Positions 16,301 through 60,433 of a DNA stretch of 64,000 nucleotides are shown here, one piece after another. Source of the DNA: a virus; the IMG/VR virus record IMGVR_UViG_3300035158_000222, positions 35,955 to 99,954 of that record; one strand, written 5' to 3'. The notes below the pieces were generated by a model, which was given only the letters and a program-made list of their open reading frames with translations, searched no databases and was not told the DNA's origin. Positions within the stretch are counted from its first letter, which is position 1, and each line of letters starts with the position of its first letter. Both the position numbers and the translations under genes were made by a program.

Positions 16301-19300
16301 CATCTTGTCGACCATCTTTGTTACAGCCCTGGCCTCCACATCGTTCATACCAAAGCCTTCACCGACTAGGATTCGGCCCAGGTTGTCGGGGTGGAAATCA
16401 GGATCTACAATGACAGTCATGTTTTTAATATATCCCCTTACTTCGTTGGCTTGTCTTATCAGTTCTTCTTTCTGTGCGCCTACCATTCTTGTAGAACGTC
16501 TCTCTAGGTCTTTCCGGAAGGAGTCAAGAGTTTCCTTTAGGGTCCCGCTCATATCGAAGACCACCGGGAAATCCTTCTCCCGCCCAGTCTTTCTGAACAG
16601 TCCTTTAATAGCCGCGTGTACTTCCGTCATGCTTCTCGCATTGCCTACCTGCACTATATCAGCCTTCATAATTTTTATCTGGCCTAGATCTTTGGCAGAC
16701 GGTAGCTTGTCGTAGAATTGTTTTTTAATATCTGCTGCAGTAATGCGCGGCACTTCAGTAGTTGGATGAGTAACGGTCGGGACACCGATTTCCTTCAGGC
16801 CCTCTCTTGTTAAGAGTTTGTCGCCCATGTCTGCGATAGCATTGTGTAGTGCGCCCATCGCGGCTCCCATCTCAGGAGTGATATGTCCCTTGTCCGCCCA
16901 GTATACTCCATCTATCGGAATAGGAATATGATTATGTCTGGCTACAGCCATTGGAATTACAGACTTCTTGATAGCCTTTAGTCTGACCAGAGCCTCTTGA
17001 TTTGTTCTATAGTTGAATAGTATATCGTTATAGTCTATGTCAGGATCGCCTGTCCTTAGAGTTTTCTCCTGTCTCTTCATAGAATCCTGTACTCGCTTTA
17101 TCTCCCTATCAAGTTCGTCGTAGACATGTCTGGCTATAGTAGTATTTATGTTCCCATCCTTATCCACAATCTTTCCGTCCGGAGTATCACCGGTCAGAAG
17201 GAATCTCTCTACAGACATATCGTGTCTCATTCTATTTTCGACAGCAGCAAGATCAGTAGAAACTTCGTCTACCTTCTTGTCCAGTTTCTTGATCTTGGCA
17301 TCTCGTTCTTTCTTGAGTATGTCTATACCATCGCGTATCTGCTTTCTCTTAACTGTAAACTCTATAGCAGATTCGGCAACGATCTTTCTCATGCCAGCTC
17401 TTGCCTTCGGATCTTTTTCTTTATCGATCATCTTCTTAGCTTTCTCTCTTTGTCTATTGTATAGAGCCTGTCCATCTTCGATAACCTTATACTCACCGTT
17501 GATTCGCTTCTCGTAATCTCGCTCTATCTTTCTCGTCTGATTCGACAGGTCTTCAAGCTGGTCATTCAAACCTTTGATCTGTTTTCTATAGTCTGCCTTG
17601 TCAGACTTATCGTTGACCCACCTAGCCAGATCGTCTGGACCTATCTTATTCGCAACGTCAAATGCCACTCCAAGATTCTTCACGAGCTCTTCTGCAGAGA
17701 AATCTCTGATAGCCTTAGGAAGTTTCTTGGGCTTGAATGCTTCGCGCGCGGACTTGCTCAGGAGGTGTTTACCTATAACGTTACCACCAACCTGGTTAAG
17801 CTTGGACACTTCGGCAGCAGCTTTCGCATCCTCGGACGGACGCCTTGTGACTTTCCATTCCCAGTCATCAAACTTCTCTCTTGATATAGCTAGCTGTCTC
17901 TTTCTATATTCGTCACCCTTCTTGACTATCTTCTTCTTCTTAATCCGTTCCATGGCACTAGGATTCTCGCCCACATCATCAATCATCTTCTGGAATCTAG
18001 GAATAGGACCGTCTGTCATGTCGTCTAGATCAACGCGGATAAGAGGGGTTCTGGACCATCGAGGAGTTTCGAATGATACCTTAGCGCCCTTAATCTTCTT
18101 GAGCTTGGTATAGAATACTCCAGGATTAGCAATGTCTGGTTTTGTCTCCATTGTCTCCTTGCCGGTTCTTAAATCTACAGTCTTCTTACGCGGACCAACA
18201 TAATCTCCTCTACCATTGACCCAGTTAGAATGCTCCCTCTGCAATAATTTAGAGAATGCTTTTCCCTCTGGAAGCGAAGACTTTATTTCTCCGGACAATA
18301 TCCCGCTAAATATAGTTGCAGTTGAATCAACTACGTCTGCTAGCATCCCAAACTTTCTTAGTTCATCTATGCCACCATGTGCATCTTGCCAGGCAGCATA
18401 AGCCTTGTATAGAGCACGCTCTGCCGGAGGAACTTGCTTTTCTAGGAACTGCTTACCGAACTCGCCTATATTTATCTTGTGTCCTCTCATCATATCCCAT
18501 ATTTCTCTACCAAAATGTTTATAGTTCAGCTCAGCAGATTCTTCTACAGTATAGTAAAGCTTGCTTGCGAGACTATTTCCCTCAATAAGATCTGATGCCT
18601 TTCCGGTAGGAAGATATACAGACCGGTATCCCTCGGCCTTCTTGTTGTACAGCGCATGGCGTATTGTAATATCAAACCAGCTATCATAGAGATCGGCATA
18701 CCGCTTGTACACATCATAGTCCGCGATCTTCCTGCCCTTGACCGCCTTGTTAGATAGGATATCCATGAATGTAGTTCTGTATCTCTTCTCTTGACCCTGA
18801 TAGTAATCTATAATCTTCTTCGCAGAGTCCAGGTTTTTATATAGACCTCTTTTAAATTCGAGTCTACCTATCTTTACCTTCAGCGTACGACCAGCTTTGA
18901 AGTTAGCATTTAGATCAACTATGTTCTTGTAATACTTTCTATCGAGGTCATACAGTAGCTTACCGGTAGTAGTATCGGTACCAAGGCGCTTTGACTGCTC
19001 CTCTACGAATGCTAATACATAGTCTGCCATTGGATCGTGCGGTCCGAACTGTTTTTTTCTTAGCTTAGAGAGCTCGCCAAGTCTTGGCATAGTTTTTAGT
19101 TTACCTGCATCAAGCTTTGAATTCAGCTCTGCTATACCAAGGATAGTAGCATTAAGATCTCCTCTTGCCTCCGGTTCATACTTATACACGCTGTCTATCC
19201 GGCTGAATATACCCTTGTCCTTCGCGCCTGCTATTAAATCAGAAGTAAGTTTGTGTTTCTCTAGCCACTTGATAATATTCTTGCCTGCCTCATTTCTACG

Positions 19301-22300
19301 ATACAGACTGGTATTTTGTTCGATAAATATTTGTCCCTGCTTTGCCGCTAACTCCTTCGCAGGAATTTTTTCCGCTTCACTTTCGAGCCTGGCAAACTCT
19401 GCCTTATAGTCTTCTGCGAATTTAGCTATGTCTTTTCTCTGCTGCGTATTGCCATCGAAGTACATTCTAATAAGTTTATTCTCTATCTTGTTCGAGGTGA
19501 CATCGAAGGTTATGTCCCTATTAGCTTTTATATTCAGATCAATCTCATGAACAGCTTTCTCACTCGCCTTAGCAACATCATTGTAATTATCCATGGCACT
19601 CATCAGTTCCAGATCATTCTTATATTTAGCCAGCATTGATACTCTATTTTTTGCTTCTCTCTTCGCGACCTCTTCTATACCGGTAATACCGCCAGCTATC
19701 TCGTAGTCTCCATTAACAAAAGACTTCTTGATTTCCGGCAGAATGTCAGACTGGAACTCATGGATAAACACATCGTCCCCGATCTTAAACTCGGCATACC
19801 AACCAATACCATTGTATCGCTTCTTTGCCTCGCGGATACCAAACCTGTGGGCATTGGTTATAACTGCATCATCGACAAACAGCCTGCGCTTGTACTCTAT
19901 CGGAACCTTCTTCTTTTGTATATCTGTCATAGGCCCGATAGGAATAAGATTTTTAATTCCATACATTTCATGCCCAGTAACATCTACTACTCCAAGATCA
20001 TATCTTTGTCTCAGCCAATTTCTGTATGCATCGGCAAGCTCTGATGCTGGCATGGACTTTTCCTTGGTTGTCTCCAATAGATCCTTCCTGAATAATTCCA
20101 TGGCCTCAAGCTCGGCCTTCTTAATGCCCTCAAACTTAAATGGAGATGTAAGGGCTATGGCAGTGTCCGGCTTCTTCTCACCTAGCCAGTCTACAAATTT
20201 ATATTTAAGCTCGACAGGGTTCACTCTCTTAGATATGGCTTTCATGTCTGCGTCCTTTTGATTGAGCAGTTTTCTTTTTACTTTGAATCCGGAGAATGAT
20301 CCGTCAGTAAGGGCCCTGTCAAGATTGTCAACCGTTCTGGTTCTTGGATTATACGGACCCTGTGGCAGCACATACATTCTATCTACATACATATCTGCTC
20401 TCTGTTCAGCAGTAAGGTTGGTACCCAGCTCACGCTCTATAGCATCATCTACGGCAGAGTACTTTGCTGCATCGCCTATATCTACCTTACGTTTCTCGAG
20501 TGCAATAAGATTACCGATATCCTCCAGTGTAAGATCCGGCCTTAGTTCTCCTGGTCTGATCACTTCTCTCTTTCCAAACATAACATTAAAGTAATCGGCT
20601 ACTCTATCCAGGAGCTCTCTGACTTTACTAATGAGTCTTTGTCCCGTAGTAAGGGAGATTTTATCGGCAGCATACCTACCGATTGCCTCGGCAATACCCT
20701 CCTTATAGAAGTCTTCACTCCCGACTTTGATCTCAGGATACTTCTTCTCAATGTATTTAAGTATCTCGCCCTCGGTATCTAGTTCCTTCTTGAGGGCTTT
20801 ATAGAGATCAACATTCTCGCGAGAAATTACTTCTATGAATGGGTGAGCTATCTCATGGAATGGCGTTGAGGCCTTTGCGTAGGCACGGTTAATGTAGACC
20901 TGGCCATTTACGAATTGACCAGCCCATTTCATTTCCCTCCGATTAATTACTTTTACCTTCACGCCGAATCTGCTTGCGACTTGATAAGACGCACTGTCTA
21001 TCGCATACCTAGACATCTTCTTACCATAGGCCTGCTTCTCCAGCTTAGTCTTAGGCGGAGGGAGCAATAGAACCTCAGGCGGGGCCGGGTCTACGTTTAT
21101 TGTCTTGGGCCTTCTTGCTTCCGGATCTCTTACGAATCTAACTATATCAATAGCACCAAGTTCTTTCTTGGCGGCATAGAACGCAGCATTCCATTCCCGC
21201 AGCTTATCAAGATATTTCTCATAGGAAAGGATTTCTCTCGGGCTCTTGATATCTCTCAGCAGCGCTCCCACCTCTTCAGGCGTCAGCTTCTCGAACGCTT
21301 CCTCTCTGTCTACTTTATTTCTGTAGTCACGGGTCACGCGCTTACCACCGCTTCTCTCGCGTCTTAGTCTGGTTGCCTCGCGGGCTATACCCTCCTCAGA
21401 GAGTCCTACTAACATTCTTTGTTCTATATCCGATAGTTCAGTAAATTCCAACAGGAGCTCCATGGCAGTCTTAGTCTTCACGATGGATCCTGTCTCATCA
21501 CGTATACCTACAATCGGAGTAGCCAGAGCCTTCTCAAAGTTCCTTAGATAGTACTCAGGATTCTCTGCAGCCTTAACCGGATCAACAGACTGTGAGATCA
21601 GGTGGATAGAGTCATTGGCTCGGAACCCAGAACCGGCAGGAAGTCTGTCCTCCAGGATCGCATATACGATTGGATCATACGTTCCCTTGGCACGGAGCCT
21701 TTGCATGATCTCGGCAGATGTAAGAGTTTCTTCTATCTTAGCTTGAGGTGCAAGAACTTCGAAGTGTGTATCTTCGACAAAGCTCGGATGCTCTCTCATG
21801 TAATTGATAATGGCACGCTCTTCCGCGCTGTCACCAAACCACGCGAACTTCTTTCCATACCATGGGTTCGGCTTTCCCTTAGCATCAGTGGGATGCAGAA
21901 TAATCTCCAGCTCTCTCGCCAGCTCAGGAGTTACAAAGTAGTCCTCTGAGACATGCTTCTGCTTAGAGATTCTTCTATCTGGAGTTACTCTGTCGACGAA
22001 CTTAAGTTCGGGAACTGCCATCTTCTTTGCGTAGTCTTTGCCAACATCCTGGAGTTTTTTCCACTCTACTCTTTTGGCTTCGTATGCTTTCTGCCACTTA
22101 TCTATCGTGGCCTTGCTTCTCTTTTTCTTCTTGGCTATGTTTAGTTTCTCCTGAGTCACAAGCATATCTATCTTTGCCTGTGCCGCTCTTTGCTCCATTT
22201 CATTCAGCTTATCTATAACCGCTCTGTCTACAAGTCTGGGCTCAAGAACCTTCCAGACACGAGACCGCTGGTTATTCTCGAATACATCCTGCATGATCTT

Positions 22301-25300
22301 CGGGATAGATCTGGTTGTGGCACCGGGCTCCTTATCCATCTTCATTAGAATATCAAGGCCACCCTTTTGGATCTCCTTCGTGAACTTGTTGAACTTCTCC
22401 GTGAAGGCTTCCTTCGGGACCTTACGCCTCAGGATATAGGAAACTTGCTTGTTGAGTTTTCGCTCCGCGAACCAGAATTCATAATCATTCCATAGCTCAG
22501 ACATCTTGCGCACTTGTTCGTCAGTGTACTTCTCAAAGCTCCAGCCCTTGTTGCCCCCCTCCTTCTCGGGCACCATACCAGGCCATTCCTTCAGCTTATC
22601 CTTTAGGGTAGTGAATTGATTAGCATCTTTAGTCTTATTTAATTCGAATTTAGTATACAGAGCAAACTCCTTCTTGGTAGTTTCGTATAGGGCAGCGTCA
22701 GTTCTGGCCTTCAGGATATCGTCCCTTCTGGTAACAGCCCACATCGTACCAAGAGTATTGAAGTTTCTAAGTAGTTCGTTAATATTCTGATCAGTTAAAT
22801 ATCTACCTCTCATTATCATCTCTACGATATTGTACGGAGCCTTCGGGAAGAACGCTGGCTTGTCACCGCCAAGTTTCATCAGGAAGTATACCAGCTCATC
22901 AGCCGGGGTAAGTTTGAACGGGGCATCCGGTCTGTCTATCCAGATCTTCTTCTCCCTGTCCCACATCTTGGTAACCTGATACGATCTGTCTAGAACATTC
23001 CTTAGCTTCGCGTATAGGTTAGGATTAGTATAGTATAGATTTTCTAATCCGATAGCAGAGGAAAATACCAAGTCGACTTCGGGATCATACGGGGTGTACC
23101 TTCCTTCACCGATCTCATGAACACCGGTACGCTTCCACATTTCACGCACACCGGTCTTCGGATCTTTGATGCCGCCCTCGTAAGTTCTCTGTACAACATC
23201 CTGGATAGGATAAAGTTCGGACATTTGCTTTGTCCATACTACTTGCTTTTTATTTTTAACGACATCGAACTTGCCCAGTATGCTGGTAAGCTCTCCTCTC
23301 TGAGCGCTGTTCAGGAACTGATGGTACCACCCAACCTTCGGGTTTAGGTATGCTGTACGCAAAAGATTGTATACAACGACCGGCCCCATCTCACCTCTAT
23401 TCTTGGCAGCCTCAACATACTCGATAATAGTTTTGGTCTTACCCTTTGATGTGGCAGTAAGTTTCCTTGTCTTAGGATCGAATTGGAACTTCTGATTCTT
23501 CTCAAAGAACAGTGTCTTCCAGTTATCAGATATCTTACCTATCGTAAACCGTCTTGAGTTCTCTATCTGCTGCTGTGCAATAGCTGTGAATGCACCAAGA
23601 AGATCTCCGGACAATCCCATTCTTGTCTTTCTTGTACGTCTGTACATTACCCTGTACACGCCAGTATCAGGGTCCCTGAGGATCAGATTCTGATTATTTT
23701 TCCATAACGCCTGATCGTGTGGGTGAAGGGCACTGAAGTCGTCAGGAGTAATCCCGTAGAAGACAAAGTCATCAGTTACCTTTATCGGAACAGCCTGGTC
23801 TGCTTCAACCATTCTGCGGAAGAAGTCATCACGCTTCCTGTATATATCAGCAGCCTCAACAGCTCTGTCTATTGATCCATGATATTTCTTTGGATAGTCT
23901 TCATAGAGTTTCTTCTTAACCCTGTCCAGCTCTTCGGTTGTTTTAATCATACGTTCTCTTTTAATAACCTTACCGTCCTTGTCTACCTTCTCTATTACCC
24001 TGAACAGATCAAGTAATGCCTGTCGTCCAACCTTGTCCAAGTTTGCAACCTGCTCTCCATAGTAGACAAGTTCGAACCGCCCAAGGTTTCTGGATTCAAA
24101 TATCCTCTGCCTGAATTCTTTCAGGAAGTTGTCCGGAGACACTATTACTCCTACTCCTCGAGAGATGTTGTTCGGATCAAAGGCTTCACCATAAAGTCCG
24201 CGATTAAGTTCTACAACTTCATTGAACAAATCAGTATCAGCCTTGATCTCATCACTGACAAGATCCTTAAGTTTGGTCTTATCCTTCTTCACGAGAACTC
24301 TTTTGTAATAGGTCTCCGGGAACATTTGCATCAATCGTCTGATGTCCTCTGTCGCCAGGCCCATAGTTTCGTTGAATTTCCAGAAGACATCTTCAGCATC
24401 TGCGCTGGCTCTGATAGGATCTGCAACGTACTCCCTGAGATAGTTCTTTACCCTGGTGGCCGGGAGGTCGAATTCCCCGGATACCTTAGCCACTGCTTCT
24501 ATGAACTTAACTTCATTCTGCGCACGCAAAACTCCCAGCTCCTGATCGGTTAACTGGGTAATCTTTTTTCCTTTGTACGGAAGTAGTTTAGCTAGTGAGA
24601 TACCTCGCCACTTCATCGAAGCAACGGTTAAGGTATTGAGATTTATCTTATTGGGCTCAAAAGTTGTTAAGAGTTCACGGAATGTTGTCGCATCCTGCGG
24701 GGAGTAGAACCTCTCGGTCGGAACTTTCCCCTTCCGGATAACGTTATCCAGGCTCCAGATAAATTCGAATGTCCCGAGCGCGGCGCGCTTAAATCCTGTG
24801 CGCTCTGCATCGTCAAGAAGCTTGTATGCGATCTTCTGTCCCAGTGGTCTCATCAATCTTCTTGTCCCCCTACCAACCGGATACCACAATAGATCAATGG
24901 GGTCAGTCACAATCATCAAGGCTTCATCGAGAAGCTCAGTAAAAACAGGATAGTTGTTCTGCAACTTAACCCTGGTCTGGTCATTAAGTATGTTTAGGAA
25001 TGATATATCGTCCTCTCTTGTGATAGGAATCTTGATCTCTGTACCGGCCGGTATCTTTGTAATATCTTTGATTCCCATTGCATACAGGTCATTACGCATT
25101 TGAATATCAGCAATGATCTTCATTCTGTCAGGACCGGCAGGCACTATATCCATGAGGCTGCCTTCTTTTTCAAACCTATATTTAAACTCGTTGCGCGCGT
25201 CACGCATCCAGTTGTATGTCTTCTCCCAGTTCTTCATGATCTGCGGAACATCTTTAGCTCCTTTGTATAGCAGGATTTCTGTTCCTATCGGAATCTTATC

Positions 25301-28153
25301 AAAGTCTTTGATGTGAGGATTCAGTTTCTTAACGGCTTCTATCCGCTCCTCGGGTGTAGGCTCTACGAATCCGACAACGGCATCCAGGTCCCATGGATCC
25401 ATGAATGATTCTAGTGGACCCTCGAACTCTGTCACGATCTTTCTGTCGTCAAGCCTGCTCCAGAGTTGCTCCTGATCTACAGTATGGTCGGGATAATTCA
25501 ACCATCGTCTTACCATCCGGATAGACATTAGTGCCTTGTCTATGGGCCCTGCATCGTCAGGCTCCATAATAACCTGGCCAAGTTTAAATTCATTCGGCAT
25601 ACCAAGAGACTTCATCTTCTTGTTAAGGAAGTTATCGGTCTCCATACCGATCCACTGCAGGAAGTTTTCGAATTCATTTACTGTAGCTAGCGTGGCTGGC
25701 CAAGCCTCTTTGAACAGGAGATTGTTATACTTCATTAGACCTTCGAATACGACCTGTGACGGTTTCCATTTGACTTCCTTGCCGGTAACCTTACCCCACA
25801 ACTTTCTTGGTCCCCAGGTAATGCCATCCGCAGTATATAGCGGAGCCTTAATGTATGGAGATATAATAACCGCATCGAATAGAGCCCAGGCTCTGCTACC
25901 CAACAGATCATATGTCAGACGTGCTCTTGATGGAGCCTCCCTATATGCCTCAATGATGCTGGTCGGCTTTACTAACCTTGCCTTCTCGAATGCCGCATGT
26001 TGCTTAGATTCATTATTTAATTCTTCGATCTCCTGGAATTGTCTTGCCCTGGCTTCCATCTCATTGGCTTCATCTATCTTCTTAAACGAATCAAGCAGCT
26101 TATTATAGAACCGGTCCAGTTCCTCGTTATATGATTTAAGTTCATTGTCATATTGCTCCTGGAGATCGGTAAGCTTTTGATTATCTGTCTGGACTCTTGA
26201 GTAGTTGTTTCTGATCCAGGATTCATTCTCTCTATATGAGGCTGCTATCTTCTGTGCATTGCTAAGCTCTCCGGCATTCATGATCTTACCTGCGATAACC
26301 GCATCCTGGAATGTAGGATTATTAACAAGGTCTTCAAGCCTTGGTCCGATATTATTCAGGATGGTTTCCTTCACATTGATTCTCTCTGCTATCTTATTTC
26401 CTTTTGTTACTTCGAGATTATATTTATCTAGAGTGCTGTGAAACTTTTGGGCCAGATCGTTGATCTTGATTATCCTATCCCTGTTCAGCATCCCATATGT
26501 CGTATGTGTCATCTGTTCGAACTCTGTCATCGCATCGAATCTGTAGCTATCCTCGATATACTTGTCCATCTCAGGATCAATCAATGAGTCAAGCTCTGCC
26601 TTCTGATCCAGCATCTCGTCCATCATCTCGTCAGCAGATTTAGACACGTCATCAAATTCGCTGGTAAGTATCTTAACTTCTTCCGATGTGGCAGATATAT
26701 CCGATAGGGATTCTGCGATATCGCCCATCTCTGATATCGTCTCTTCGATCACGCGGTGCTTCTCTTCGGGCACAGTGGTAAGGTCCAGCTTATACATCTT
26801 ATCCGTAGCATCCCTGGATAGCTGCAGGAGATCGGCTATATCATTGAACTTCCGCGTAGTTCTGTCCTGCACCTGGTATAGCGGGCTATCTTCCGGAAGG
26901 GCAAACATCTCTGCTTTCCTTTCCATTTCTTTTAATGCTTCCTCTCCCATCTTTTCCATGTCATATAGGGGCCTTCCTTTCTCATCTATCGGAATTGCAA
27001 TCCCAAGCTTCTTGGCTTCTTCAAGTGCTGGGCCTCTAAGCCAATCGAACTCAGCCTGTCGTGTTGACTCGGCTTTCTGCTGTTCTATCTCAAATGCCTT
27101 AGGGGCTGTGGTCTTTCTGATTCTCTGTACCTCTCCCTTCTGGGATACAAGAGTAAAATCATATTGGTTGTATATATCGAGAACCTCTTCGTAGCCCTTG
27201 CCCTGTTTGATTGCTTCATCGATTCTATCTTTCAGTTCTTCAATCTTCTTATCGGTTACTGGCTTGTTTAGGAAGTTCTTAACCGCATCGTCTATTCTAA
27301 CTTCCTCCTCGGCATCAAGCATAGTCTTAACTGCATTACCGAATCCCTTGCGGATCTTGTCCTGGACCGTTGCCTCTGGGGCATTGGTTCTGATACCGAT
27401 GCTCGGAAAATAAGTGTTTGTTACAGGAATAAAGTAGTCGGTCATTCCTTCTCTGATTTTTTGTTTAAGACCTTCGAACTTCTTTGCATCTTCCGGGGCC
27501 TTGGGTTGGAAGAATTCATCGAATCTCTCTCCGAGTTTATCCATCTGTTCGGTCACGTCTACTCCGAATATACTAAAAAAAGACCTGGCCTCGTCCGGTT
27601 CAGGGACGGGTTCAGGTCTCTTTTCGGGAGCCCTTGGTCTAAGCTCTGGGGGAACTTCAGCTTCTGGAATGATATCTACTCTGGGTTCGGGAACTTCCGG
27701 CTCTACAACTTCCACCTCTACAGCCTCTGGAGGAGGTACAATCTCCACCTTGGGCTCTGGAATTTCCGGCTCAACTACTTCTACTTTCGCCTCTGGGAAC
27801 TCGGGTTCAACAACCTCTACCTTTTGCTTCTTGGCTAGGTAGCGTTCGTATGCGCCTTCTTCGCGCCATTCTTTCCCCAGGTCTTTATCGATTTGTTCGT
27901 CTGCTACGTTTGGGAAACGTGCCTTCACTTCGTTCCATACCGGACCCCAGTCAACTCCTGTTTGCAACTTTCGTATACCCTCTTTGATAGCATCATCGTA
28001 TTGAGTGGCCGGGACAACAACCTCCTGCCCTACTTTAATCACATTGGGATCTGTTATGTCTTTATTCAGTTGAAGGACAGTGTTAAGATCCGACCCATAT
28101 TGTTTTGCAATATTGGTCAAAGTCTCGCCACCTTTAACGACATGGCGTATCAT
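10322..28153 (-). CDS. Giant 5,943-residue LysM and metallopeptidase polyvalent protein
   Basis: One unbroken frame covers 17.8 kb. Residues 3-49 form a LysM peptidoglycan-binding domain (HVVKGGETLTNIAKQYG). Residues about 110-185 are Pro/Glu/Val repeats (VEVVEPE-type linker). Coiled coils follow. A zincin motif HEIAH is at residues 2433-2437. Near residue 2796, FIHEFQSDI resembles the EIQSD core of domains in large phage polyvalent proteins. Hydrophobic stretches near 4407-4430 and 4640-4670 could insert in a membrane. The last 1,000 residues hold aromatic repeats. It is probably packaged in the virion and injected with the DNA, acting on the cell wall and on host defences. Those roles are inference from the polyvalent-protein class. 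Confidence 0.8.
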   Translation of the reverse strand: MIRHVVKGGETLTNIAKQYGSDLNTVLQLNKDITDPNVIKVGQEVVVPATQYDDAIKEGIRKLQTGVDWGPVWNEVKARFPNVADEQIDKDLGKEWREEGAYERYLAKKQKVEVVEPEFPEAKVEVVEPEIPEPKVEIVPPPEAVEVEVVEPEVPEPRVDIIPEAEVPPELRPRAPEKRPEPVPEPDEARSFFSIFGVDVTEQMDKLGERFDEFFQPKAPEDAKKFEGLKQKIREGMTDYFIPVTNTYFPSIGIRTNAPEATVQDKIRKGFGNAVKTMLDAEEEVRIDDAVKNFLNKPVTDKKIEELKDRIDEAIKQGKGYEEVLDIYNQYDFTLVSQKGEVQRIRKTTAPKAFEIEQQKAESTRQAEFDWLRGPALEEAKKLGIAIPIDEKGRPLYDMEKMGEEALKEMERKAEMFALPEDSPLYQVQDRTTRKFNDIADLLQLSRDATDKMYKLDLTTVPEEKHRVIEETISEMGDIAESLSDISATSEEVKILTSEFDDVSKSADEMMDEMLDQKAELDSLIDPEMDKYIEDSYRFDAMTEFEQMTHTTYGMLNRDRIIKINDLAQKFHSTLDKYNLEVTKGNKIAERINVKETILNNIGPRLEDLVNNPTFQDAVIAGKIMNAGELSNAQKIAASYRENESWIRNNYSRVQTDNQKLTDLQEQYDNELKSYNEELDRFYNKLLDSFKKIDEANEMEARARQFQEIEELNNESKQHAAFEKARLVKPTSIIEAYREAPSRARLTYDLLGSRAWALFDAVIISPYIKAPLYTADGITWGPRKLWGKVTGKEVKWKPSQVVFEGLMKYNNLLFKEAWPATLATVNEFENFLQWIGMETDNFLNKKMKSLGMPNEFKLGQVIMEPDDAGPIDKALMSIRMVRRWLNYPDHTVDQEQLWSRLDDRKIVTEFEGPLESFMDPWDLDAVVGFVEPTPEERIEAVKKLNPHIKDFDKIPIGTEILLYKGAKDVPQIMKNWEKTYNWMRDARNEFKYRFEKEGSLMDIVPAGPDRMKIIADIQMRNDLYAMGIKDITKIPAGTEIKIPITREDDISFLNILNDQTRVKLQNNYPVFTELLDEALMIVTDPIDLLWYPVGRGTRRLMRPLGQKIAYKLLDDAERTGFKRAALGTFEFIWSLDNVIRKGKVPTERFYSPQDATTFRELLTTFEPNKINLNTLTVASMKWRGISLAKLLPYKGKKITQLTDQELGVLRAQNEVKFIEAVAKVSGEFDLPATRVKNYLREYVADPIRASADAEDVFWKFNETMGLATEDIRRLMQMFPETYYKRVLVKKDKTKLKDLVSDEIKADTDLFNEVVELNRGLYGEAFDPNNISRGVGVIVSPDNFLKEFRQRIFESRNLGRFELVYYGEQVANLDKVGRQALLDLFRVIEKVDKDGKVIKRERMIKTTEELDRVKKKLYEDYPKKYHGSIDRAVEAADIYRKRDDFFRRMVEADQAVPIKVTDDFVFYGITPDDFSALHPHDQALWKNNQNLILRDPDTGVYRVMYRRTRKTRMGLSGDLLGAFTAIAQQQIENSRRFTIGKISDNWKTLFFEKNQKFQFDPKTRKLTATSKGKTKTIIEYVEAAKNRGEMGPVVVYNLLRTAYLNPKVGWYHQFLNSAQRGELTSILGKFDVVKNKKQVVWTKQMSELYPIQDVVQRTYEGGIKDPKTGVREMWKRTGVHEIGEGRYTPYDPEVDLVFSSAIGLENLYYTNPNLYAKLRNVLDRSYQVTKMWDREKKIWIDRPDAPFKLTPADELVYFLMKLGGDKPAFFPKAPYNIVEMIMRGRYLTDQNINELLRNFNTLGTMWAVTRRDDILKARTDAALYETTKKEFALYTKFELNKTKDANQFTTLKDKLKEWPGMVPEKEGGNKGWSFEKYTDEQVRKMSELWNDYEFWFAERKLNKQVSYILRRKVPKEAFTEKFNKFTKEIQKGGLDILMKMDKEPGATTRSIPKIMQDVFENNQRSRVWKVLEPRLVDRAVIDKLNEMEQRAAQAKIDMLVTQEKLNIAKKKKRSKATIDKWQKAYEAKRVEWKKLQDVGKDYAKKMAVPELKFVDRVTPDRRISKQKHVSEDYFVTPELARELEIILHPTDAKGKPNPWYGKKFAWFGDSAEERAIINYMREHPSFVEDTHFEVLAPQAKIEETLTSAEIMQRLRAKGTYDPIVYAILEDRLPAGSGFRANDSIHLISQSVDPVKAAENPEYYLRNFEKALATPIVGIRDETGSIVKTKTAMELLLEFTELSDIEQRMLVGLSEEGIAREATRLRRERSGGKRVTRDYRNKVDREEAFEKLTPEEVGALLRDIKSPREILSYEKYLDKLREWNAAFYAAKKELGAIDIVRFVRDPEARRPKTINVDPAPPEVLLLPPPKTKLEKQAYGKKMSRYAIDSASYQVASRFGVKVKVINRREMKWAGQFVNGQVYINRAYAKASTPFHEIAHPFIEVISRENVDLYKALKKELDTEGEILKYIEKKYPEIKVGSEDFYKEGIAEAIGRYAADKISLTTGQRLISKVRELLDRVADYFNVMFGKREVIRPGELRPDLTLEDIGNLIALEKRKVDIGDAAKYSAVDDAIERELGTNLTAEQRADMYVDRMYVLPQGPYNPRTRTVDNLDRALTDGSFSGFKVKRKLLNQKDADMKAISKRVNPVELKYKFVDWLGEKKPDTAIALTSPFKFEGIKKAELEAMELFRKDLLETTKEKSMPASELADAYRNWLRQRYDLGVVDVTGHEMYGIKNLIPIGPMTDIQKKKVPIEYKRRLFVDDAVITNAHRFGIREAKKRYNGIGWYAEFKIGDDVFIHEFQSDILPEIKKSFVNGDYEIAGGITGIEEVAKREAKNRVSMLAKYKNDLELMSAMDNYNDVAKASEKAVHEIDLNIKANRDITFDVTSNKIENKLIRMYFDGNTQQRKDIAKFAEDYKAEFARLESEAEKIPAKELAAKQGQIFIEQNTSLYRRNEAGKNIIKWLEKHKLTSDLIAGAKDKGIFSRIDSVYKYEPEARGDLNATILGIAELNSKLDAGKLKTMPRLGELSKLRKKQFGPHDPMADYVLAFVEEQSKRLGTDTTTGKLLYDLDRKYYKNIVDLNANFKAGRTLKVKIGRLEFKRGLYKNLDSAKKIIDYYQGQEKRYRTTFMDILSNKAVKGRKIADYDVYKRYADLYDSWFDITIRHALYNKKAEGYRSVYLPTGKASDLIEGNSLASKLYYTVEESAELNYKHFGREIWDMMRGHKINIGEFGKQFLEKQVPPAERALYKAYAAWQDAHGGIDELRKFGMLADVVDSTATIFSGILSGEIKSSLPEGKAFSKLLQREHSNWVNGRGDYVGPRKKTVDLRTGKETMETKPDIANPGVFYTKLKKIKGAKVSFETPRWSRTPLIRVDLDDMTDGPIPRFQKMIDDVGENPSAMERIKKKKIVKKGDEYRKRQLAISREKFDDWEWKVTRRPSEDAKAAAEVSKLNQVGGNVIGKHLLSKSAREAFKPKKLPKAIRDFSAEELVKNLGVAFDVANKIGPDDLARWVNDKSDKADYRKQIKGLNDQLEDLSNQTRKIERDYEKRINGEYKVIEDGQALYNRQREKAKKMIDKEKDPKARAGMRKIVAESAIEFTVKRKQIRDGIDILKKERDAKIKKLDKKVDEVSTDLAAVENRMRHDMSVERFLLTGDTPDGKIVDKDGNINTTIARHVYDELDREIKRVQDSMKRQEKTLRTGDPDIDYNDILFNYRTNQEALVRLKAIKKSVIPMAVARHNHIPIPIDGVYWADKGHITPEMGAAMGALHNAIADMGDKLLTREGLKEIGVPTVTHPTTEVPRITAADIKKQFYDKLPSAKDLGQIKIMKADIVQVGNARSMTEVHAAIKGLFRKTGREKDFPVVFDMSGTLKETLDSFRKDLERRSTRMVGAQKEELIRQANEVRGYIKNMTVIVDPDFHPDNLGRILVGEGFGMNDVEARAVTKMVDKMKERGAIWIFGESSELASPWHLKNSMYGKGMLPEDRAMHNLMREDFDQIVRAAADPKPGFPGHFPVDPDSFASEFFGVDKKGNITIDSLLESRPQIAERSARDMALAGLEADMIRHNVGVGEAADYKKFVRGSNILVVGGRSTFLNPDQRKAIMYGYNNGTRFVFNGVKMMPGEKAVFEFVSSLPNSKVAFMSFNEKNIMAIRNGNPVKISMRDPKLKKTVTKAKHVDLMFPTTRQFRTKAMRDLYEKFSLPGTVNILKHEELIKAKLRQELQESVSKWMGDPNKFPPWFITDKMNMYHNSYFQKPIKDIMVDWASIKGRQELKEKFDKGIDSAMKEYRDEIRKGFMEQNNGKPLLDWQERLIDEHHRQAIEISKNIKRYVFKFDMPSRLIESFKRKMANHMFYLHERQRQEFDDTFNGIHEQLVGEVPRNLRYYERANKLFLKTLPDVNQVQKTIRRTAFSTFIWSVLMLRPGWLLWNYLGDSMRVIMGTRNVRLFIDISRLQAEATALRMKKHLINVREFTKLMIGKEADIGVYNLEAYLKAKKDSRSIPGMLRSKRVRKAYMESIKPRNKNLVNEAIELGDWESITSAGLVQYLADPKKAEGHVRVLRDYMDSEPLNNFVVARKTARKLKLAGRVFFADYVSMAAQLENMRRVIMAHDLMYRKAFNKAKTEIKVKKFLYDYRDLTLAGRFFRTFFPFYAFTAKSIGLYLGAMIKYGPGVYQASNALLDAYDKLSADMPDQFKERVPFGDKIWVLPHFGVLEYLRVIVDPFESLKKFADNPLKMSFALGWGPFFAGGIELVGKRGFHETGPLMRDFGKYGWFAEEQRRYKERDASRFTDELTYSDEPSALVTFMMAYLPPLRVMESIFETDYAVQLRGTAWYNSKKVRAIFKWFGLNYLELEDVAFVWDSLNKLPPHERDLFKRSLEAENPDLWKYFQQYNMLLQMDRINKAKGKSKEQKIYDLHKFIVIQVYFEKEWEKDGSGDVWLAQNPDIKHIVEKHFDDLEKQYGITSKQILGKRKFEMAQVEASIRKMLTTTRDVDQNKIARMNLAGISHPFKKPFKEAELRAELFDKFGNLKVKNIDEVVKILEKYDAIVTFLDPQIYKEEAEVDYQRWQALGLEAQEQARDEDARFYGRMSLVFATLPDNLDELPDEEANKYWDKYNKRLEDLILSIPKWKQRYLDEMPPWQREYYEKRVQYGNWWGEMIQRIEREEDTDFFNWFNAKPGWFRKWYYLSNPDARLYFPLVQETNIRRQKIVDTQDKTGFDPADWKGLYDYIWKNQNALKAWDRRRPGTYNYYDKLKQLYDGLTKAREVDDSTIYFDLFFQKKGNKGWDDFREFYFSKEHNTWKRITYPYVRTWLELQKRDEENELLTGKRTNLATVWFWSEKNKKARETYHENKKIDGVHSVVDYQRVWKDAADKFEKDPGIIYQFVYDQEEWFRNRYFDIHPDRKVYYPMALKMQEFEEFQDRLGYFFKAENKTQRDAWERDKPGIVGYYKFWYDHNNIKEKDGRAAALEFYFSDANKDYRLRHDSANPGAIEAYTLWKQYEAIDRESWEGRKERREFLRENPKLREWWDRDKDISEEEVAFNLQREIYYTIIDKVEADGKGRQYYLDYFEARAKAQKYFDDNPEFEQWFKSDREITRTPKQQAMDTLMEQYNALDYDSERREFLLEHEDLDRYLLLQVPPGIRRIRLLQRAYFKIEHEDSDKQYELRQTFLDRYPELEEYWEVSKMPTSYWTDRSKFDTTRNKFSKAEKFFEAVEQKQWRSAEKFKDLLPAVPDTRTEEGRWLLNKLYGRAMSTWATTFGTFMSTYYFKMLPSWLRNEYFKRHPEKKFLSYLSLGRQMEEGLRIEDNKRPDQAWAVRQQNKFRKNIPFDIKKQVEDILVKRGTWQDRSVWTDAQWDQWWEARIARVNALRQKDLEELPLLRSELLRVMRRYPLSTLPKPLKGWGDVNPFIVTNVIAFTNEEFSNTLEDRKVLTRVPERAKI

Positions 28154-33897: not shown

Positions 33898-34485
33898 ATG
33901 AAAAAGATAAATGTAACAGTAAAAGGACTATGTCCTATTCTCCATGCTAGGCATCCTACTCCCAAAGAGGAAGCCGAGATACTAAAGCGCAAGTCAAATC
34001 CTAAGTTTAAGGTGAAGGACATGACCGACGAAGAAAAATTTGAGATGCATTCATATAAGGTAGCGAAGAAGTTTGTCCTACCTAGTGAGATGTTCGAGGC
34101 AACCATGGTAAAGGCTGCTGTTCAGGTTAAGATGGAAGGAAAGAAGACGTATAAGGATGCATTCAAGGGAGGGATAATAGTTAATCCGGAAATGATCCCA
34201 TTCAAAACACAGAAGGTAGTAATGAAAGACACTCCGCAGAAGGGTGCATGGTGGATGTTTGGTAAATGGGGCCGCAATCCGAGCACTCGTGGTGCTATGT
34301 GGATTGTTAGGCCAAGATTGGATGAATGGGAATTAGACTTTACTATAGATCTGCTCATGGATGAGCTGATCCCCGTCGATGTAGTAAAAGGCGTATTAAC
34401 ATTCGCAGGAATGTATATTGGAGTTGGTGCTTGGCGTCCGAAGTTCGGTCGCTTTGAGGTTACCAAGTTCAAGGTACAAAAGTAA
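33898..34485 (+). CDS. Conserved phage protein ending in the GxWRPxFGRFEV motif
   Basis: The product has 195 residues. The C-terminal motif GVGAWRPKFGRFEV and the middle VLPSEMFEATMVKAA plus KKTYKDAFKGG match a protein family common in phages and prophages, often near recombination or replication genes. I recall no proven function. The compact fold with a glycine-rich ending is reminiscent of RAMP/Cas7-like proteins, but that is a guess. The start is TAATTATG, directly after the previous stop. Confidence 0.6.
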   Translation: MKKINVTVKGLCPILHARHPTPKEEAEILKRKSNPKFKVKDMTDEEKFEMHSYKVAKKFVLPSEMFEATMVKAAVQVKMEGKKTYKDAFKGGIIVNPEMIPFKTQKVVMKDTPQKGAWWMFGKWGRNPSTRGAMWIVRPRLDEWELDFTIDLLMDELIPVDVVKGVLTFAGMYIGVGAWRPKFGRFEVTKFKVQK

Positions 34486-34487: not shown

Positions 34488-34787
34488 ATGTTTAGGAAAC
34501 CCAAAAAGGAACCTAAGACTAGGTTCGCTCCCGACAATCTTAAGACTCTGAAAGGCAGTGACATGATTCAAATGTCACGTGAGCTTCTCGACGCAGCCGT
34601 GCGTTCGACAGAGATACTTAAGCTTAAACCTGGAGAGATGACTCCTGAAAAATTGAAGGAGGCCAAAGTTGTTCTTGGCTATGTTAATGCTACGAATAAT
34701 GTCATGAAGACTAGGATAAATATCCTAAAGATGACTGGTATTCAAGCAAAATGCAAAGCTATCAAGAGCAAATCAAAATCACTTTAG
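34488..34787 (+). CDS. Hypothetical helical protein next to the pentamer array
   Basis: The product has 99 residues, MFRKPKKEPKTRF, with a very basic disordered start and helices after residue 25. It ends KAIKSKSKSL, a basic tail suited to nucleic-acid contact. It is the last gene before the noncoding pentamer array, so it is a candidate array-binding protein by position only. Confidence 0.55.
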   Translation: MFRKPKKEPKTRFAPDNLKTLKGSDMIQMSRELLDAAVRSTEILKLKPGEMTPEKLKEAKVVLGYVNATNNVMKTRINILKMTGIQAKCKAIKSKSKSL

Positions 34788-34802: not shown

Positions 34803-35184
34803 CTTCTGAAGTTCAGTCAGGTTCAGTGCCGTAAACTGATGTTCAGTGGACTCAAGTAGCGTGATGTATAGTAATGCTTCTATAGTCCAGTTGTGTCTAG
34901 TATCGTATTGTGAACTGGTGTGAACTTTTGTCTTGCAAAGTGAAGTAATGTAATGCTTCTGCAGTTTAGTGGCGTGTTGTGGTCTAGTGTTGTGTGCAGT
35001 TCAGCAAAGTGATGTAGTTTAATGTACAGTAATGCTTCTTCAGTACAGCAAGGTGTTGTAAACTTGTGTTTTGTGGACTAGCGTAATGTGAAGTAAAGTA
35101 ATGCTTCTGAAGTCTTGTCTAGTTATGTCAACTAATCTGTTGTTCAGTGATGTGTTGTGAGGTGAACTAATGTAAAGTATAGAT
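34803..35184 (+). repeat. Noncoding array of five-base words, five units
   Basis: The plus strand divides into consecutive pentamers of form NNNGT or NNNCT: cttct gaagt tcagt caggt, and so on. Five units start with CTTCT at 34803, 34877, 34956, 35035 and 35104. The first four end AATG, and that four-base word resets the register. Units hold 14, 15, 15, 13 and 15 pentamers. I count 72 pentamers, 53 ending GT, and only three without T at position five. Stops fill all frames, so it is not coding. A 7-bp hairpin (35183-35202) closes the array. Confidence 0.9.
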
Positions 35185-35245
35185 CGTAGATTTAACTACG
35201 ATAAAATAAAACAAACACTAAAAGTTTAATTATTACAGGAAGTTT

Positions 35246-47241: not shown

Positions 47242-47797
47242 ATACAAAGCGGAAGAGAAGAAGTTCTGGAACAGTAGCCAGAACCTAAATGTGTACAATC
47301 TTTTCGTCCAGGGTAAGGCGATAGTTGATATTGCAGGCACCCTGAAGATGCGCCCTGTAACTGTGGAAAAGATAATCACTAGGAGTTTTTTTGTCAAAAG
47401 ACTCGAGCATCACCTGCGTGGAGTCATGTTTACTACCCAGGTAGCACAGATACTGGCGAAGGACAACATCTTCTCTAAACTTTGGGAGCGAGTACGGGAT
47501 AATATCGAAGATATCCCGCCTGAGATTTGCTTAAAAGAACTAACCAAGCTCTTCCCTCAGAAGAAAGATGGATTAATAATCAATCCCAAGAACATGAACA
47601 TATTCATGAAGGTTATGCAGGATACTCCACCCGAGAAACTGGGTGAGAGGCTGGAAGAAATAGAGGACGACTTCGGTTTTGAGGGGCTGGATGAGGATGA
47701 CAAAGCTAAATATCCTGAGCTGGAAGGGCCTAAAGACGATGGTATCAAACAAGGGGATCCTGAAGTGGATCAAACAAAAACAAATAAGGACGAATAA
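47210..47797 (+). CDS. Small terminase subunit (HTH DNA-binding)
   Basis: The product has 195 residues. Residues 26-60 (NVYNLFVQGKAIVDIAGTLKMRPVTVEKI) form a helix-turn-helix as in phage small terminases that recognise the packaging site. The middle is helical and the C-terminus acidic (EEIEDDFGFEGLDEDDK), suited to contact the large subunit. It lies directly upstream of and overlaps the large terminase, the usual order. The assignment rests on HTH plus position. Confidence 0.75.
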   Translation: MSNPGDKALIKYKAEEKKFWNSSQNLNVYNLFVQGKAIVDIAGTLKMRPVTVEKIITRSFFVKRLEHHLRGVMFTTQVAQILAKDNIFSKLWERVRDNIEDIPPEICLKELTKLFPQKKDGLIINPKNMNIFMKVMQDTPPEKLGERLEEIEDDFGFEGLDEDDKAKYPELEGPKDDGIKQGDPEVDQTKTNKDE

Positions 47798-50231
47798 GGG
47801 TCTTCCGGTAGAGTTCAGAGACCACGGATTCCTCCTGGATTACGTGCGCGATCCGCACAACCGCATTGTTGTGCGTAAATGCACGCACCCAGATACAAGG
47901 GTTCTTAGGTCTGATCTTAAATGGGTTAAGATAAAGAATCTCAATAAAGGAGATTCTTTAGTGGGGATTACAGAGAGCGCACCATCTGGACGTGGAGCCA
48001 GAAGGAGGTTCGAAGATACTGTAGTGCTTGATAAGTGGATTACAAACAAGAGAGCATTTAAGATGACTCTCGAAGATGGAAGAAGTATAATAGTATCAGA
48101 GGATCATCTGTTCCTTGCAATGAAATCAAAAGGCAGGGCCGGTAACCAATATGACTGGCATGAGCTAAGAAATCTTGATCCCGGTGACTACGTTCGGGTA
48201 GTCTTTGATGTATGGGATGGTCCAAACTACGAATGTGGCTGGATAGCTGGCATACTTGATGGTGAAGGATCACTTAAGGTATCAAGGAAGTCCGGAGGAT
48301 CTGACCTGGTTATATCACAGAGACCCGGAATAGTGTCCGACAGGATAGATAGATACCTCAAGAGTCGTAAGTTCAAGTATCATGTACGTGATGATGATAA
48401 GCCAGATAGTAATGGTCCAGTACGTAGATTTGTTCTGTCCAGAACAAGTGAGATCATTAGGCTACTTGGCAAGACACAGCCATCAAGATGGATAGGAAAG
48501 AAGTTCTGGCTCACCATGGCACTTGGAATGGCAGGACCGAAATCAAAGATGAAGATAGCCTCGATAGAATCTGCCGGTAGAGCAGATCTTGTGGACATCG
48601 AGACAAGTAATCACACGTTTATAGCTGAGGGTATAGTCACTCACAACTGTACACAGGTGGGAGCATCCTTTTCCACTAACATAAAGATGCTGCACCTGGG
48701 AGACCAGGCGCCACTGACTACTATATACACATTGCCTACATCGTCCGAGGCCAAGAACTTCGTACTTACAAAGTTTGATCCCATGGTAGAGAGATCACCA
48801 GGACTTCTTGAGATGGTACAGAAAGTTATTCTCCGTGAGAAGATCCTATACAACAGCGTAGTTAAACGCATCGGGCCCAGCTATTACTTCTTCCGTGGAT
48901 CCTGGACCACGTGGGGCGCGCAGTCCATTGATGCTGACGTCCTCGTGGTAGACGAACTCGACTTCCAGAGAGAAGACGTAAGACAAATGTGGGAAGAGCG
49001 GACCGAGGGATCCGCATCGCAGGATATTATCTACTGGATTGGATATCCAAGCATTCCTAACTTCGGCATTGAAGAGCTGTATGATTCGTCCGATCAGCGC
49101 CACTGGTATATAGAATGCGGCCATTGCTTCAAGCGACAGACTCTTACATTCCCGGAAAATATAGACTTCGCTAAAGAAATCTTCCAATGCAAGTTCTGCG
49201 CCGGCGAACTGACGCCCGAGATGCGCCGAAGAGGAATATGGAAAGCCCACAAACCAGGCCGACAGATACACGGATACTGGATCAATAAGCTTATGGCCCC
49301 GTGGATAACAGCCCCTAAGATCATTCATAGATTTAAAAACGACACCCCAAAGAAGTTCCATAACTATACGCTGGGCCTACCATTCCAGGATAAAGAGACT
49401 GAGATTACTGACGAGGTAGTCGAAAGATCCCTAATGGAAGAGGACAAATACATGGCCTGCAAGAGAGATGAGAAAGCTAAGATAATCCTGGGCATTGACC
49501 AAGGTGATATCTTTCACATCCTGGTAGCCATTGCCCTACCGGATAGATTAGTAGTAGTAGGGGCCCACGAGGAGGATTCTGAAGATAAGCTTGAGAAGCG
49601 AATCAAGTTCTACAATCCTGATATGGTAGTCATGGATATGTTCCCCAACCGTCATACTGCCAAGAAGATGCGCAGAAAGATAGGGGAGAATAAGTTCTTC
49701 ATGGGTAAGGAGCGCAACTGGTCAGAGACGTCCAAGCAGCGTAACTATTGGAGCACTAACAGATCGATGGGTGAGATCGGCATAGAGAGGACTGAGTCTA
49801 TCGACGCCATGATGGAATACATCATGAAAGGCGCCATCAGATTCAGACGTTCTATTCCGAACTTACTGAGTAAGGACAAACATAACCCAGGTGTCATTCA
49901 ACATATTAGAAATCTGGTACCTGATACCCAGGAGCGTTTCGGTAAATTGCGCAGAGTTTGGAAGAAGACTGGCCCAGAGCACTACGCGCATTCACTGAAC
50001 TTCCTGGTTGTTGCCTGCCACACATTGTTTCCTGGCTGGCAGTCACGAGAGATGATAGTCCCATCCTCTGACTTACTGGCTGTACCAAAGCCTAAGCCAT
50101 GGTACGTTAAGGATTTCGAACGAAGGACTAGATCACTATCGGGAAATGACACTGTCATTATCCCACAGGGGAGCGACCCCGTGGAGCCCGAGGACATAGT
50201 TCCGAGGAATCCAGGTGATATTTATTGCTAA
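47739..50231 (+). CDS. Large terminase (GpA-like) interrupted by an intein
   Basis: The product from ATG 47739 has 830 residues including a 256-residue intein; a start at 47679 is possible. The host protein reads IVVRK, then after splicing CTQVGAS, the Walker A-like K-x-x-Q-x-G-x-S of GpA-family terminases. Walker B is VLVVDELDF. A cysteine ribbon (CGHC...CKFC) lies between. The nuclease half shows GIDQGD, VVMDMFP and a late HSLNF, acidic and helical motifs of the RNase-H-like domain. It translocates DNA into heads and cuts it. Confidence 0.92.
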   Translation: MVSNKGILKWIKQKQIRTNKGLPVEFRDHGFLLDYVRDPHNRIVVRKCTHPDTRVLRSDLKWVKIKNLNKGDSLVGITESAPSGRGARRRFEDTVVLDKWITNKRAFKMTLEDGRSIIVSEDHLFLAMKSKGRAGNQYDWHELRNLDPGDYVRVVFDVWDGPNYECGWIAGILDGEGSLKVSRKSGGSDLVISQRPGIVSDRIDRYLKSRKFKYHVRDDDKPDSNGPVRRFVLSRTSEIIRLLGKTQPSRWIGKKFWLTMALGMAGPKSKMKIASIESAGRADLVDIETSNHTFIAEGIVTHNCTQVGASFSTNIKMLHLGDQAPLTTIYTLPTSSEAKNFVLTKFDPMVERSPGLLEMVQKVILREKILYNSVVKRIGPSYYFFRGSWTTWGAQSIDADVLVVDELDFQREDVRQMWEERTEGSASQDIIYWIGYPSIPNFGIEELYDSSDQRHWYIECGHCFKRQTLTFPENIDFAKEIFQCKFCAGELTPEMRRRGIWKAHKPGRQIHGYWINKLMAPWITAPKIIHRFKNDTPKKFHNYTLGLPFQDKETEITDEVVERSLMEEDKYMACKRDEKAKIILGIDQGDIFHILVAIALPDRLVVVGAHEEDSEDKLEKRIKFYNPDMVVMDMFPNRHTAKKMRRKIGENKFFMGKERNWSETSKQRNYWSTNRSMGEIGIERTESIDAMMEYIMKGAIRFRRSIPNLLSKDKHNPGVIQHIRNLVPDTQERFGKLRRVWKKTGPEHYAHSLNFLVVACHTLFPGWQSREMIVPSSDLLAVPKPKPWYVKDFERRTRSLSGNDTVIIPQGSDPVEPEDIVPRNPGDIYC
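47880..48647 (+). mobile_element. Intein with LAGLIDADG-type endonuclease in the terminase
   Basis: The intein starts at Cys (CTHPDTRV) and ends HTFIAEGIVTHN, with Cys as the next residue: all splicing residues (Cys1, block F/G His-Asn, Cys+1) are present. An N-terminal LEDGRSIIVSEDH matches block B. The endonuclease motif WIAGILDGEGSL is LAGLIDADG-like. The element is in frame and should remove itself from the protein. It sits at the ATPase P-loop, where most terminase inteins insert. Confidence 0.93.
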
Positions 50232-59313: not shown

Positions 59314-59561
59314 ATGAATTGGGGAAAAATTTGCTCACCCAGTGACACTTCCTTAATAGGCGGTATGGGTGGGTGTGTTTAGAGGCAACGAACTTAAGTT
59401 CGTGTGTGCCTTTTGCTTAACATGAGCCATAGACAGCGTCATCCGGTAGGATTAAGAATTAGAGGATGGGCTGACGAACCATGGGCTGGCTAGGCTCTAC
59501 ATGGTATTTCGGCGGTGCTCCTAATGGAACCCTATGGCAGTGTGTTGCTGCGCTTGCCTTA
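59314..59561. other. Gap between the tRNA array and the basic-protein gene
   Basis: Apart from the palindrome at 59389-59402 and its flanking GGCA/TGCC arms followed by TTTT on the plus strand, I see no gene or strong promoter here. On the minus strand it is the 3' end of the tRNA transcript. Confidence 0.5.
59389..59402. promoter_or_regulatory. 14-bp palindrome CGAACTTAAGTTCG, copy 6
   Basis: Perfect dyad upstream of the leftward gene at 59313 and downstream of the tRNA array. GGCA and TGCC extend the pairing outward, so here it might also form a hairpin. Confidence 0.65.
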
Positions 59562-59656
59562 GACTGAAAGTGGGATTCGAACCCACGTTCCCGCCGGTTG
59601 CTGGTTCAATAACCGAGCGTTCCTTGCGGAGTCCTTACCGACTAGACGATTTCAGT
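59562..59656 (-). tRNA. tRNA-like gene, anticodon not assignable
   Basis: Acceptor ACTGAAA/TTTCAGT and T arm GTGGG-TTCGAAT-CCCAC are perfect, and the D arm is normal. Between them lie 44 bases: a 5-bp stem TCCGC/GCGGG contains a 31-base loop with a second stem CGGTT/AACCG. No seven-base anticodon loop is seen. It is either a tRNA with an insertion or a tRNA-like RNA. Confidence 0.5.
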
Positions 59657-59704
59657 CTGCTCACCCTAACTGAATAGAGCGGGCATCGTTTTCCCAAACG
59701 AGTG

Positions 59705-59776
59705 AGCATGTACAGGGAATCGAACCCTGCCCCTCTGGTTGGAAGCCAGACGTGCCGCCGTCAACACCTCACATGC
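59705..59776 (-). tRNA. tRNA-Gly (anticodon TCC)
   Basis: Acceptor GCATGTG/TACATGC, anticodon arm TCTGG-CTTCCAA-CCAGA, T arm CAGGG-TTCGATT-CCCTG. No encoded CCA. Confidence 0.9.
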
Positions 59777-59843
59777 GTTTATGACAGAGGTACTGTGGAA
59801 TACCCGGGTTCGCCACAAGCACTCGAGCCTCTCTCCTGTCCGG
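59777..59843 (-). other. Short spacer with inverted repeats between tRNAs
   Basis: Contains GACAG/CTGTC and TGTGG/CCACA pairs enclosing a CCCGGG core. It does not fit a tRNA model and has no frame. It could be a decayed tRNA or a processing signal. Confidence 0.4.
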
Positions 59844-60215: not shown

Positions 60216-60250
60216 AATGGCTGATACTCAATTATTATGTTAATAAGTGT

Positions 60251-60431: not shown

Positions 60432-60433
60432 AG

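What the first reader, a model, noticed from the sequence alone, without database searches (positions are those of the whole stretch)
34803..35184. Noncoding array with a strict five-base period (NNNGT words)
The whole 382-base stretch divides into pentamers that end in GT or CT. I count 72 pentamers: T at position five in 69, G or C at position four in 71. Five units each open with CTTCT; in the first four the four-base word AATG ends the unit and resets the register. The first three bases vary freely, so selection holds spacing, not sequence. A five-base step is half a DNA turn. It is also the step of TRAP, the ring protein that binds NAG triplets with two-base spacers in RNA. I know of no described phage element of this form. 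A ring-like or filament-forming RNA or ssDNA-binding protein reading one GT per subunit is my inference.
Basis: seen in the sequence. Interest (0 to 1): 0.95.

Follow-up and report, generated by a model that had tools for sequence, protein, structure and literature searches.

The report
Phage RNA-guide array, VIPR family variant
The odd five-base rhythm is real: it is a set of five small guide RNAs next to the gene for their Cas7-like protein, a variant of the VIPR phage-against-phage targeting systems first described in 2026, here with three rather than two varying bases per five-base step.

Summary
It is not an orphan element. The gene two places upstream (33898-34485, phrog_4652) is a homologue of the solved SUSP1 Vipr protein (PDB 36pp, profile E 6.6e-29) with a predicted Cas7/RAMP fold. 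Searching by array pattern alone recovers this gene (27 of 42 non-repetitive array loci, 0 of 240 background loci). Searching by protein recovers adjacent five-base arrays in nearly all loci, including Felix O1-like E. coli phages. The locus is therefore a VIPR system (preprint PMC13142463): an RNA-guided, DNA-binding Cas7-like protein with pentameric guide RNAs. It differs from described GGY/NN arrays: only (G/C)T is fixed and three bases vary; guides are packed without a 3' tail, separated by a 4-base TTCT that resets the register; the partner gene is not detectably vap1. Two sister viruses (L490, L491) share this design (Vipr 54-57% identical) with entirely different guides. No target was found, so how the third base is read is open. 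TRAP-like reading is rejected; a filament taking one GT step per subunit was a good guess.

The parts
33898..34485 (+). vipr-like gene (195 aa, phrog_4652), Cas7/RAMP-fold protein expected to bind the guide RNAs
   Evidence: phrog_4652 E 3.7e-18; profile with 14 relatives hits PDB 36pp_D 'SUSP1 Vipr protein' E 6.6e-29; AF2 model pLDDT 84, pTM 0.79, Foldseek best hits type VII Cas7 and Csm3; conserved G-loop GxGxxRPxxFGRF
34488..34787 (+). partner gene, 99 aa, candidate accessory (vap-like position) of unknown function
   Evidence: 41% identical homologue at the same place in L437/L491 and a homologue in G020/L490; no detectable similarity to the vap1-type proteins, no Pfam/PHROG family
34803..35184 (+). 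array of five guide units, pentamer register N1N2N3-(G/C)-T
34804..34877 (+). guide unit 1: handle TTCT (34804-34807) + 14 pentamers, ends AATGC
   Evidence: sequence
34878..34956 (+). guide unit 2: handle TTCT + 15 pentamers, ends AATGC
   Evidence: sequence
34957..35035 (+). guide unit 3: handle TTCT + 15 pentamers, ends AATGC
   Evidence: sequence
35036..35104 (+). guide unit 4: handle TTCT + 13 pentamers, ends AATGC
   Evidence: sequence
35105..35178 (+). guide unit 5: handle TTCT + 14 pentamers, ends AAAGT
   Evidence: sequence
35183..35202 (.). 7-bp hairpin ATCGTAG-ATTTAA-CTACGAT at the array's 3' end; possible RNA 3' end or processing signal (no T run on the + strand)
   Evidence: (listed as terminator-like on the - strand only)

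Best explanation
34803-35184 encodes five guide RNAs (vrRNAs) of a phage-borne VIPR system. It lies 16 bases after the partner gene and is probably transcribed with vipr (33898) and the partner gene (34488). The Vipr protein, a single-RRM relative of Cas7/Csm3, is expected to assemble as a filament on each unit, one subunit per pentamer. The constant (G/C)T dinucleotide would be held or flipped out at the subunit junction, and the variable bases N1N2 (and perhaps N3) would pair with a double-stranded DNA target at three DNA bases per step. By analogy with the tested SUSP1 system, binding would block transcription of genes of a competing virus or satellite. TTCT with the preceding AATGC marks the unit boundary and resets the register. 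Shown here: the array, its linkage to Vipr homologues, the predicted RAMP fold, and the replacement of guides between sister viruses. Inferred: transcription, filament assembly, DNA targeting and repression in this virus. Not known: the targets, and whether the third base is read.
For: (1) Protein identity: phrog_4652; PDB 36pp_D SUSP1 Vipr, E 6.6e-29 with a 15-sequence profile; predicted RAMP fold, best structural matches type VII Cas7 and type III Csm3, E from 4.7e-6. (2) Array to protein: a scan for 14 consecutive [GC]T pentamers in viral contigs, with no protein information, gave 120 loci. 31 hold a Vipr homologue in the fetched DNA; 27 of the 42 whose array is not a simple repeat; 0 of 240 loci from unrelated pattern scans, 2.08 Mb. 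phrog_4652 in 17 of 20 selected records (two of them picked by protein, one the window's own), 0 of 14 control genomes. (3) Protein to array: adjacent arrays at L125, L126, L394-L397, L490, L491, Felix O1-like phage Alf5 and Gordonia phage MakoManhole, and two of three plasmid hits, L398 and L400. (4) Sister loci with the same handle and pentamer grammar but different guides: L437/L491 and L490. Their vipr genes align at 80% DNA identity while blastn aligns nothing in the arrays. (5) Published experiments: SUSP1 vrRNA expression, co-purification with Vipr, sequence-specific DNA binding and repression (PMC13142463).
Against: The fixed motif is not GGY: position 3 is A/T-rich and variable. There is no long structured 3' tail as in the type II systems. 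The partner gene shows no similarity to vap1. No transcription evidence exists. The array's predicted RNA folding is no weaker than that of shuffles (z -0.07), so the RNA is not specially unstructured.
Confidence: 0.93

Rival explanations
1. Same family, but a contiguous triplet code: in this clade all three variable bases pair with three successive target bases (one codon per pentamer), with no skipped base.
For: Position 3 is not fixed here or in L021, L126, L064. Read as triplets, the 67 window pentamers contain no stop codon (column shuffle mean 4.07, P 0.0047), only in this frame and strand. Positions 1 and 2 have codon-like composition.
Against: With positions 1-2 kept and only position 3 shuffled, P is 0.054; sister arrays show no stop depletion (5 of 98, 4 of 83). 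Position 3 avoids C in all three sister arrays, which also fits a relaxed protein preference. No target was found with which to test it.
Confidence: 0.3
2. Double-stranded DNA element (centromere, replication origin or chromatin-like binding site) read at half-turn spacing.
For: A five-base step is half a helical turn; sequence variation with fixed spacing is compatible with a filament on DNA.
Against: Multi-unit structure with handles; linkage to a RAMP homologue rather than a par or origin gene; small-RNA and co-purification data for homologues (PMC13142463); array on the vipr strand in the window and both sisters.
Confidence: 0.03
3. TRAP-like ring protein or RNA sponge that binds the array to titrate a host regulator.
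For: Regular short motif with spacers, as in NAG repeats.
Against: No TRAP homologue at the locus; the constant element is GT/CT with varying bases before it; the adjacent conserved protein is a RAMP; the variable bases turn over completely between relatives, which a sponge would not need.
Confidence: 0.02
4. Mutational or compositional artefact such as a decayed microsatellite.
For: Many loci that match the same pattern are simple repeats (73 of 115).
Against: The variable bases are diverse (28 distinct triplets among 67), shuffles do not give the pattern, and it is conserved with the same handles in sister viruses.
Confidence: 0.01

Closest known systems
VIPR type II (Escherichia phage SUSP1 / Felix O1-like phages; PMC13142463; PDB 36pp)
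   Same: Homologous Vipr protein, short two-gene locus, non-coding pentanucleotide arrays with a constant and a hypervariable part, phage-encoded.
   Different: Fixed motif GGY/NN there, (A/T-rich variable)-(G/C)-T here; ~100-nt RNAs with a conserved 3' tail there, tightly packed units with only TTCT/AATGC boundaries here; vap1 there, a 99-aa protein without detectable similarity to it here.
VIPR systems with 'related consensus' or staggered, overlapping arrays (other types in PMC13142463)
   Same: The preprint states that other types use related consensus motifs and different array architectures.
   Different: Its supplementary figures could not be read here, so it is unknown whether this exact GY/NNN, tail-less form is among its seven types.
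Class 1 CRISPR effectors (type VII Cas7, type III Csm3)
   Same: RAMP fold, glycine-rich loop, guide RNA coated by repeated subunits.
   Different: No CRISPR repeats and no cas family detected among the neighbouring proteins scanned; five-base rather than six-base RNA step.
TRAP (trp RNA-binding attenuation protein) sites
   Same: About five-base repeat step in RNA.
   Different: TRAP needs NAG triplets and an 11-mer ring protein; neither is present.

Membership tests
VIPR | Vipr protein: single-RRM RAMP homologue with G-loop | tested here: met
   36pp_D SUSP1 Vipr E 6.6e-29; RAMP fold; conserved GxGxxRP..FGRF loop
VIPR | Non-coding tandem pentanucleotide arrays beside vipr that alternate a fixed motif (GGY or a related consensus) with hypervariable bases | tested here: met
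   the consensus here is (G/C)T with three variable bases
VIPR | Guides hypervariable between related loci while gene and register are kept | tested here: met
   L490 against L491: vipr 80% DNA identity, no blastn alignment in the arrays
VIPR | Accessory vap gene of a known class | tested here: inconclusive
   A conserved 99-aa partner exists but does not match vap1-type proteins; other vap classes were not available for comparison
VIPR | vrRNA transcribed and bound by Vipr | not testable with these tools
   Needs sRNA-seq and pull-down
VIPR | DNA targeting with a one-base skip (N1N2x) | tested here: inconclusive
   No targets found, so no rule can be read off
VIPR type II | Strict GGY/NN motif | tested here: not met
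   Position 3: 33A 5C 3G 26T
VIPR type II | Conserved structured 3' tail on each vrRNA | tested here: not met
   Units follow one another with only AATGC-TTCT between them
CRISPR-Cas | Palindromic repeats with spacers, and cas1/cas2 or effector cas genes | tested here: not met
   No such array and no cas family among the neighbouring proteins scanned
TRAP binding sites | NAG triplets with 2-3-base spacers plus a TRAP protein | tested here: not met
   Position 3 is A in only about half of the pentamers and position 4 can be C; the neighbouring proteins scanned match no TRAP family

The most novel reading that the evidence does not exclude
A VIPR clade in which every variable base of N1N2N3-GY is read, so that guide and target pair in uninterrupted triplets (one codon per pentamer) while the GY dinucleotides are looped out, with tail-less guides delimited only by TTYT and a new accessory protein. 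This would be a contiguous target code carried by an interrupted guide, intermediate between the noncontiguous VIPR code and CRISPR guides.
Probability: 0.27. Interest if true: 0.8.

Novelty: new variant of a known kind. Interest (0 to 1): 0.62.

Why it matters
VIPR was reported only in 2026 as a noncontiguous RNA-guided system that may precede CRISPR. This locus and its two sisters show that the guide grammar itself varies: the fixed part can shrink from three bases to two. That makes a sharp question testable, namely which of the five RNA positions are read. The pattern-first route also finds Vipr loci without any protein search: the scan recovered arrays with GGY, AGC, GAC, CAC, GTC and GTT fixed triplets in loci with Vipr homologues.

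Tried and rejected
Rfam at gathering threshold: only tRNAs. TRAP, CRISPR and simple-repeat readings: rejected as above. The codon reading of the triplets looked striking at first (0 of 67 stops) but weakened under the stricter shuffle and in sister arrays, so it is kept only as a rival. Homology of the 99-aa partner to vap1: not detected. One parsing slip (unit A0 of L490 out of register) was corrected.

Full report
Check of the observation. Parsed from 34803, the stretch is 5 CTTCT words plus 67 pentamers. Self-identity at lag 5 is 0.459 against 0.278 in dinucleotide shuffles; 14 of 14 successive pentamers end in [GC]T, against at most 10 in 500 shuffles. Over the whole 99,954-base virus record the pattern occurs only here and on this strand. 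No ORF of 40 aa or more covers it, and Rfam has no match there.

What it is next to. The array begins 16 bases after the stop of a 99-aa gene (34488-34787), which follows a 195-aa gene (33898-34485), all on the + strand. The 195-aa protein belongs to phrog_4652, function unknown. A profile built from it and 14 relatives hits one solved structure strongly, PDB 36pp, 'SUSP1 Vipr protein', E 6.6e-29. Its AlphaFold model (mean pLDDT 84, pTM 0.79) matches type VII Cas7 and type III Csm3 subunits best, E from 4.7e-6. The relatives share a conserved glycine-rich loop, GxGxxRP..FGRF, as expected of RAMP proteins.

Linkage, both ways. A profile search of all ORFs found Vipr homologues in 31 of them. 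Among the 42 loci whose array is not a simple repeat, 27 carry one in the fetched DNA. Among 240 loci fetched by unrelated patterns (2.08 Mb) none does. In the other direction, loci found by protein have arrays beside the gene: L125 and L126, four bacterial genome contigs L394-L397, L490 and L491, the Felix O1-like phage Alf5 and Gordonia phage MakoManhole, and two of three plasmid hits (none was detected at L399).

What is known. A full-text search found one paper that describes this: PMC13142463, a bioRxiv preprint of April/June 2026, read. VIPR systems are phage-encoded. A Vipr protein (ancestral RAMP) binds vrRNAs made of 9-16 YNNGG repeats. The NN dinucleotides pair with double-stranded DNA with one skipped base per step, and binding represses transcription. 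Many guides are reported to point at competing phages or satellites. Its model phage SUSP1 is among the records hit by the Vipr homologues. The present locus is a member of this family in the broad sense (membership table).

What differs. In most arrays examined here three bases are fixed per pentamer and two vary: GGY, AGC, GTC and GTT directly on the vipr strand, GAC and CAC from arrays read on the opposite strand in the scan. In the window, L021, L126 and L064 position 3 is not fixed. In the tree the window pairs with L021, weakly supported, and L126 and L064 fall with GGT-type loci, so the loosened form may have arisen more than once. Unit architecture also differs: the separator is a four-base handle TTCT after an AATGC pentamer, and there is no long tail. 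A scan for AATGCTTCT plus three GT steps found one Vipr-bearing locus among 89 hits, L437. It is the same contig as L491. L491 and its relative L490 have Vipr 54-57% identical to the window's and a homologue of the 99-aa protein at 40-41% identity. Their arrays are delimited by TTCT or TTTT with the same N3-GY grammar. Between L490 and L491 the vipr gene aligns at 80% DNA identity but nothing in the arrays aligns: the register is kept, the guides are replaced.

How the third base may be read. Reading the window units as successive triplets gives no stop codon in 67 (expected about 4, P 0.005), which would fit guides matching coding sequence in sense, with position 3 at the wobble base. A stricter shuffle of position 3 alone gives P 0.054, and the sister arrays show no depletion. 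Position 3 composition does not differ significantly between the three arrays (P 0.19) and avoids C throughout, so a relaxed protein preference explains it as well. The question stays open. No target was found for any guide by any of the routes tried, which is unsurprising for an uncultivated virus but leaves the mechanism here inferred from the homologous SUSP1 system.

Verdict. It is a new variant of a recently described kind. The TRAP analogy fails; the filament idea stands as inference supported by the predicted fold and by the published relative.

Noticed in passing
L437 3441-4034 (the same contig as L491): A zinc-ribbon ORF ending in an HNH-like motif lies between vipr and the partner gene in this sister virus; it is absent in the window and in L490.
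   Followed up: no
window 54287-56748: The major capsid gene appears split: a 103-aa ORF, then two homing-endonuclease-like ORFs (phrog_5046), then an ORF matching a major head protein family from profile position 91 on. Probably introns; the 103-aa piece itself matched no family and no intron family was detected.
   Followed up: partly
window 47679-50231: Terminase large subunit ORF (phrog_675, E 9.9e-90) whose N-terminal part looks like an intein with a LAGLIDADG-type stretch.
   Followed up: no
window 10322-28153 (-): A single 5943-aa ORF that begins with a LysM-like stretch, possibly a giant virion or injected protein.
   Followed up: no
window 59561-62555 (-): Cluster of 15 tRNA genes.
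   Followed up: no
L028 2215-3394: A very large canonical array: 13 GGT/NN segments in about 1.2 kb downstream of one vipr gene, promising for target decoding.
   Followed up: no
L043, L115, L091: Multi-unit arrays with fixed AGC/NN motif beside vipr, up to 10 units; a well-sampled clade for studying the fixed-motif change.
   Followed up: no
L053, L074, L078, L085, L055 and others: Arrays detected as GNNGT or CNNGT on the strand opposite vipr, i.e. NN-CAC and NN-GAC on the vipr strand: further fixed-motif variants.
   Followed up: partly
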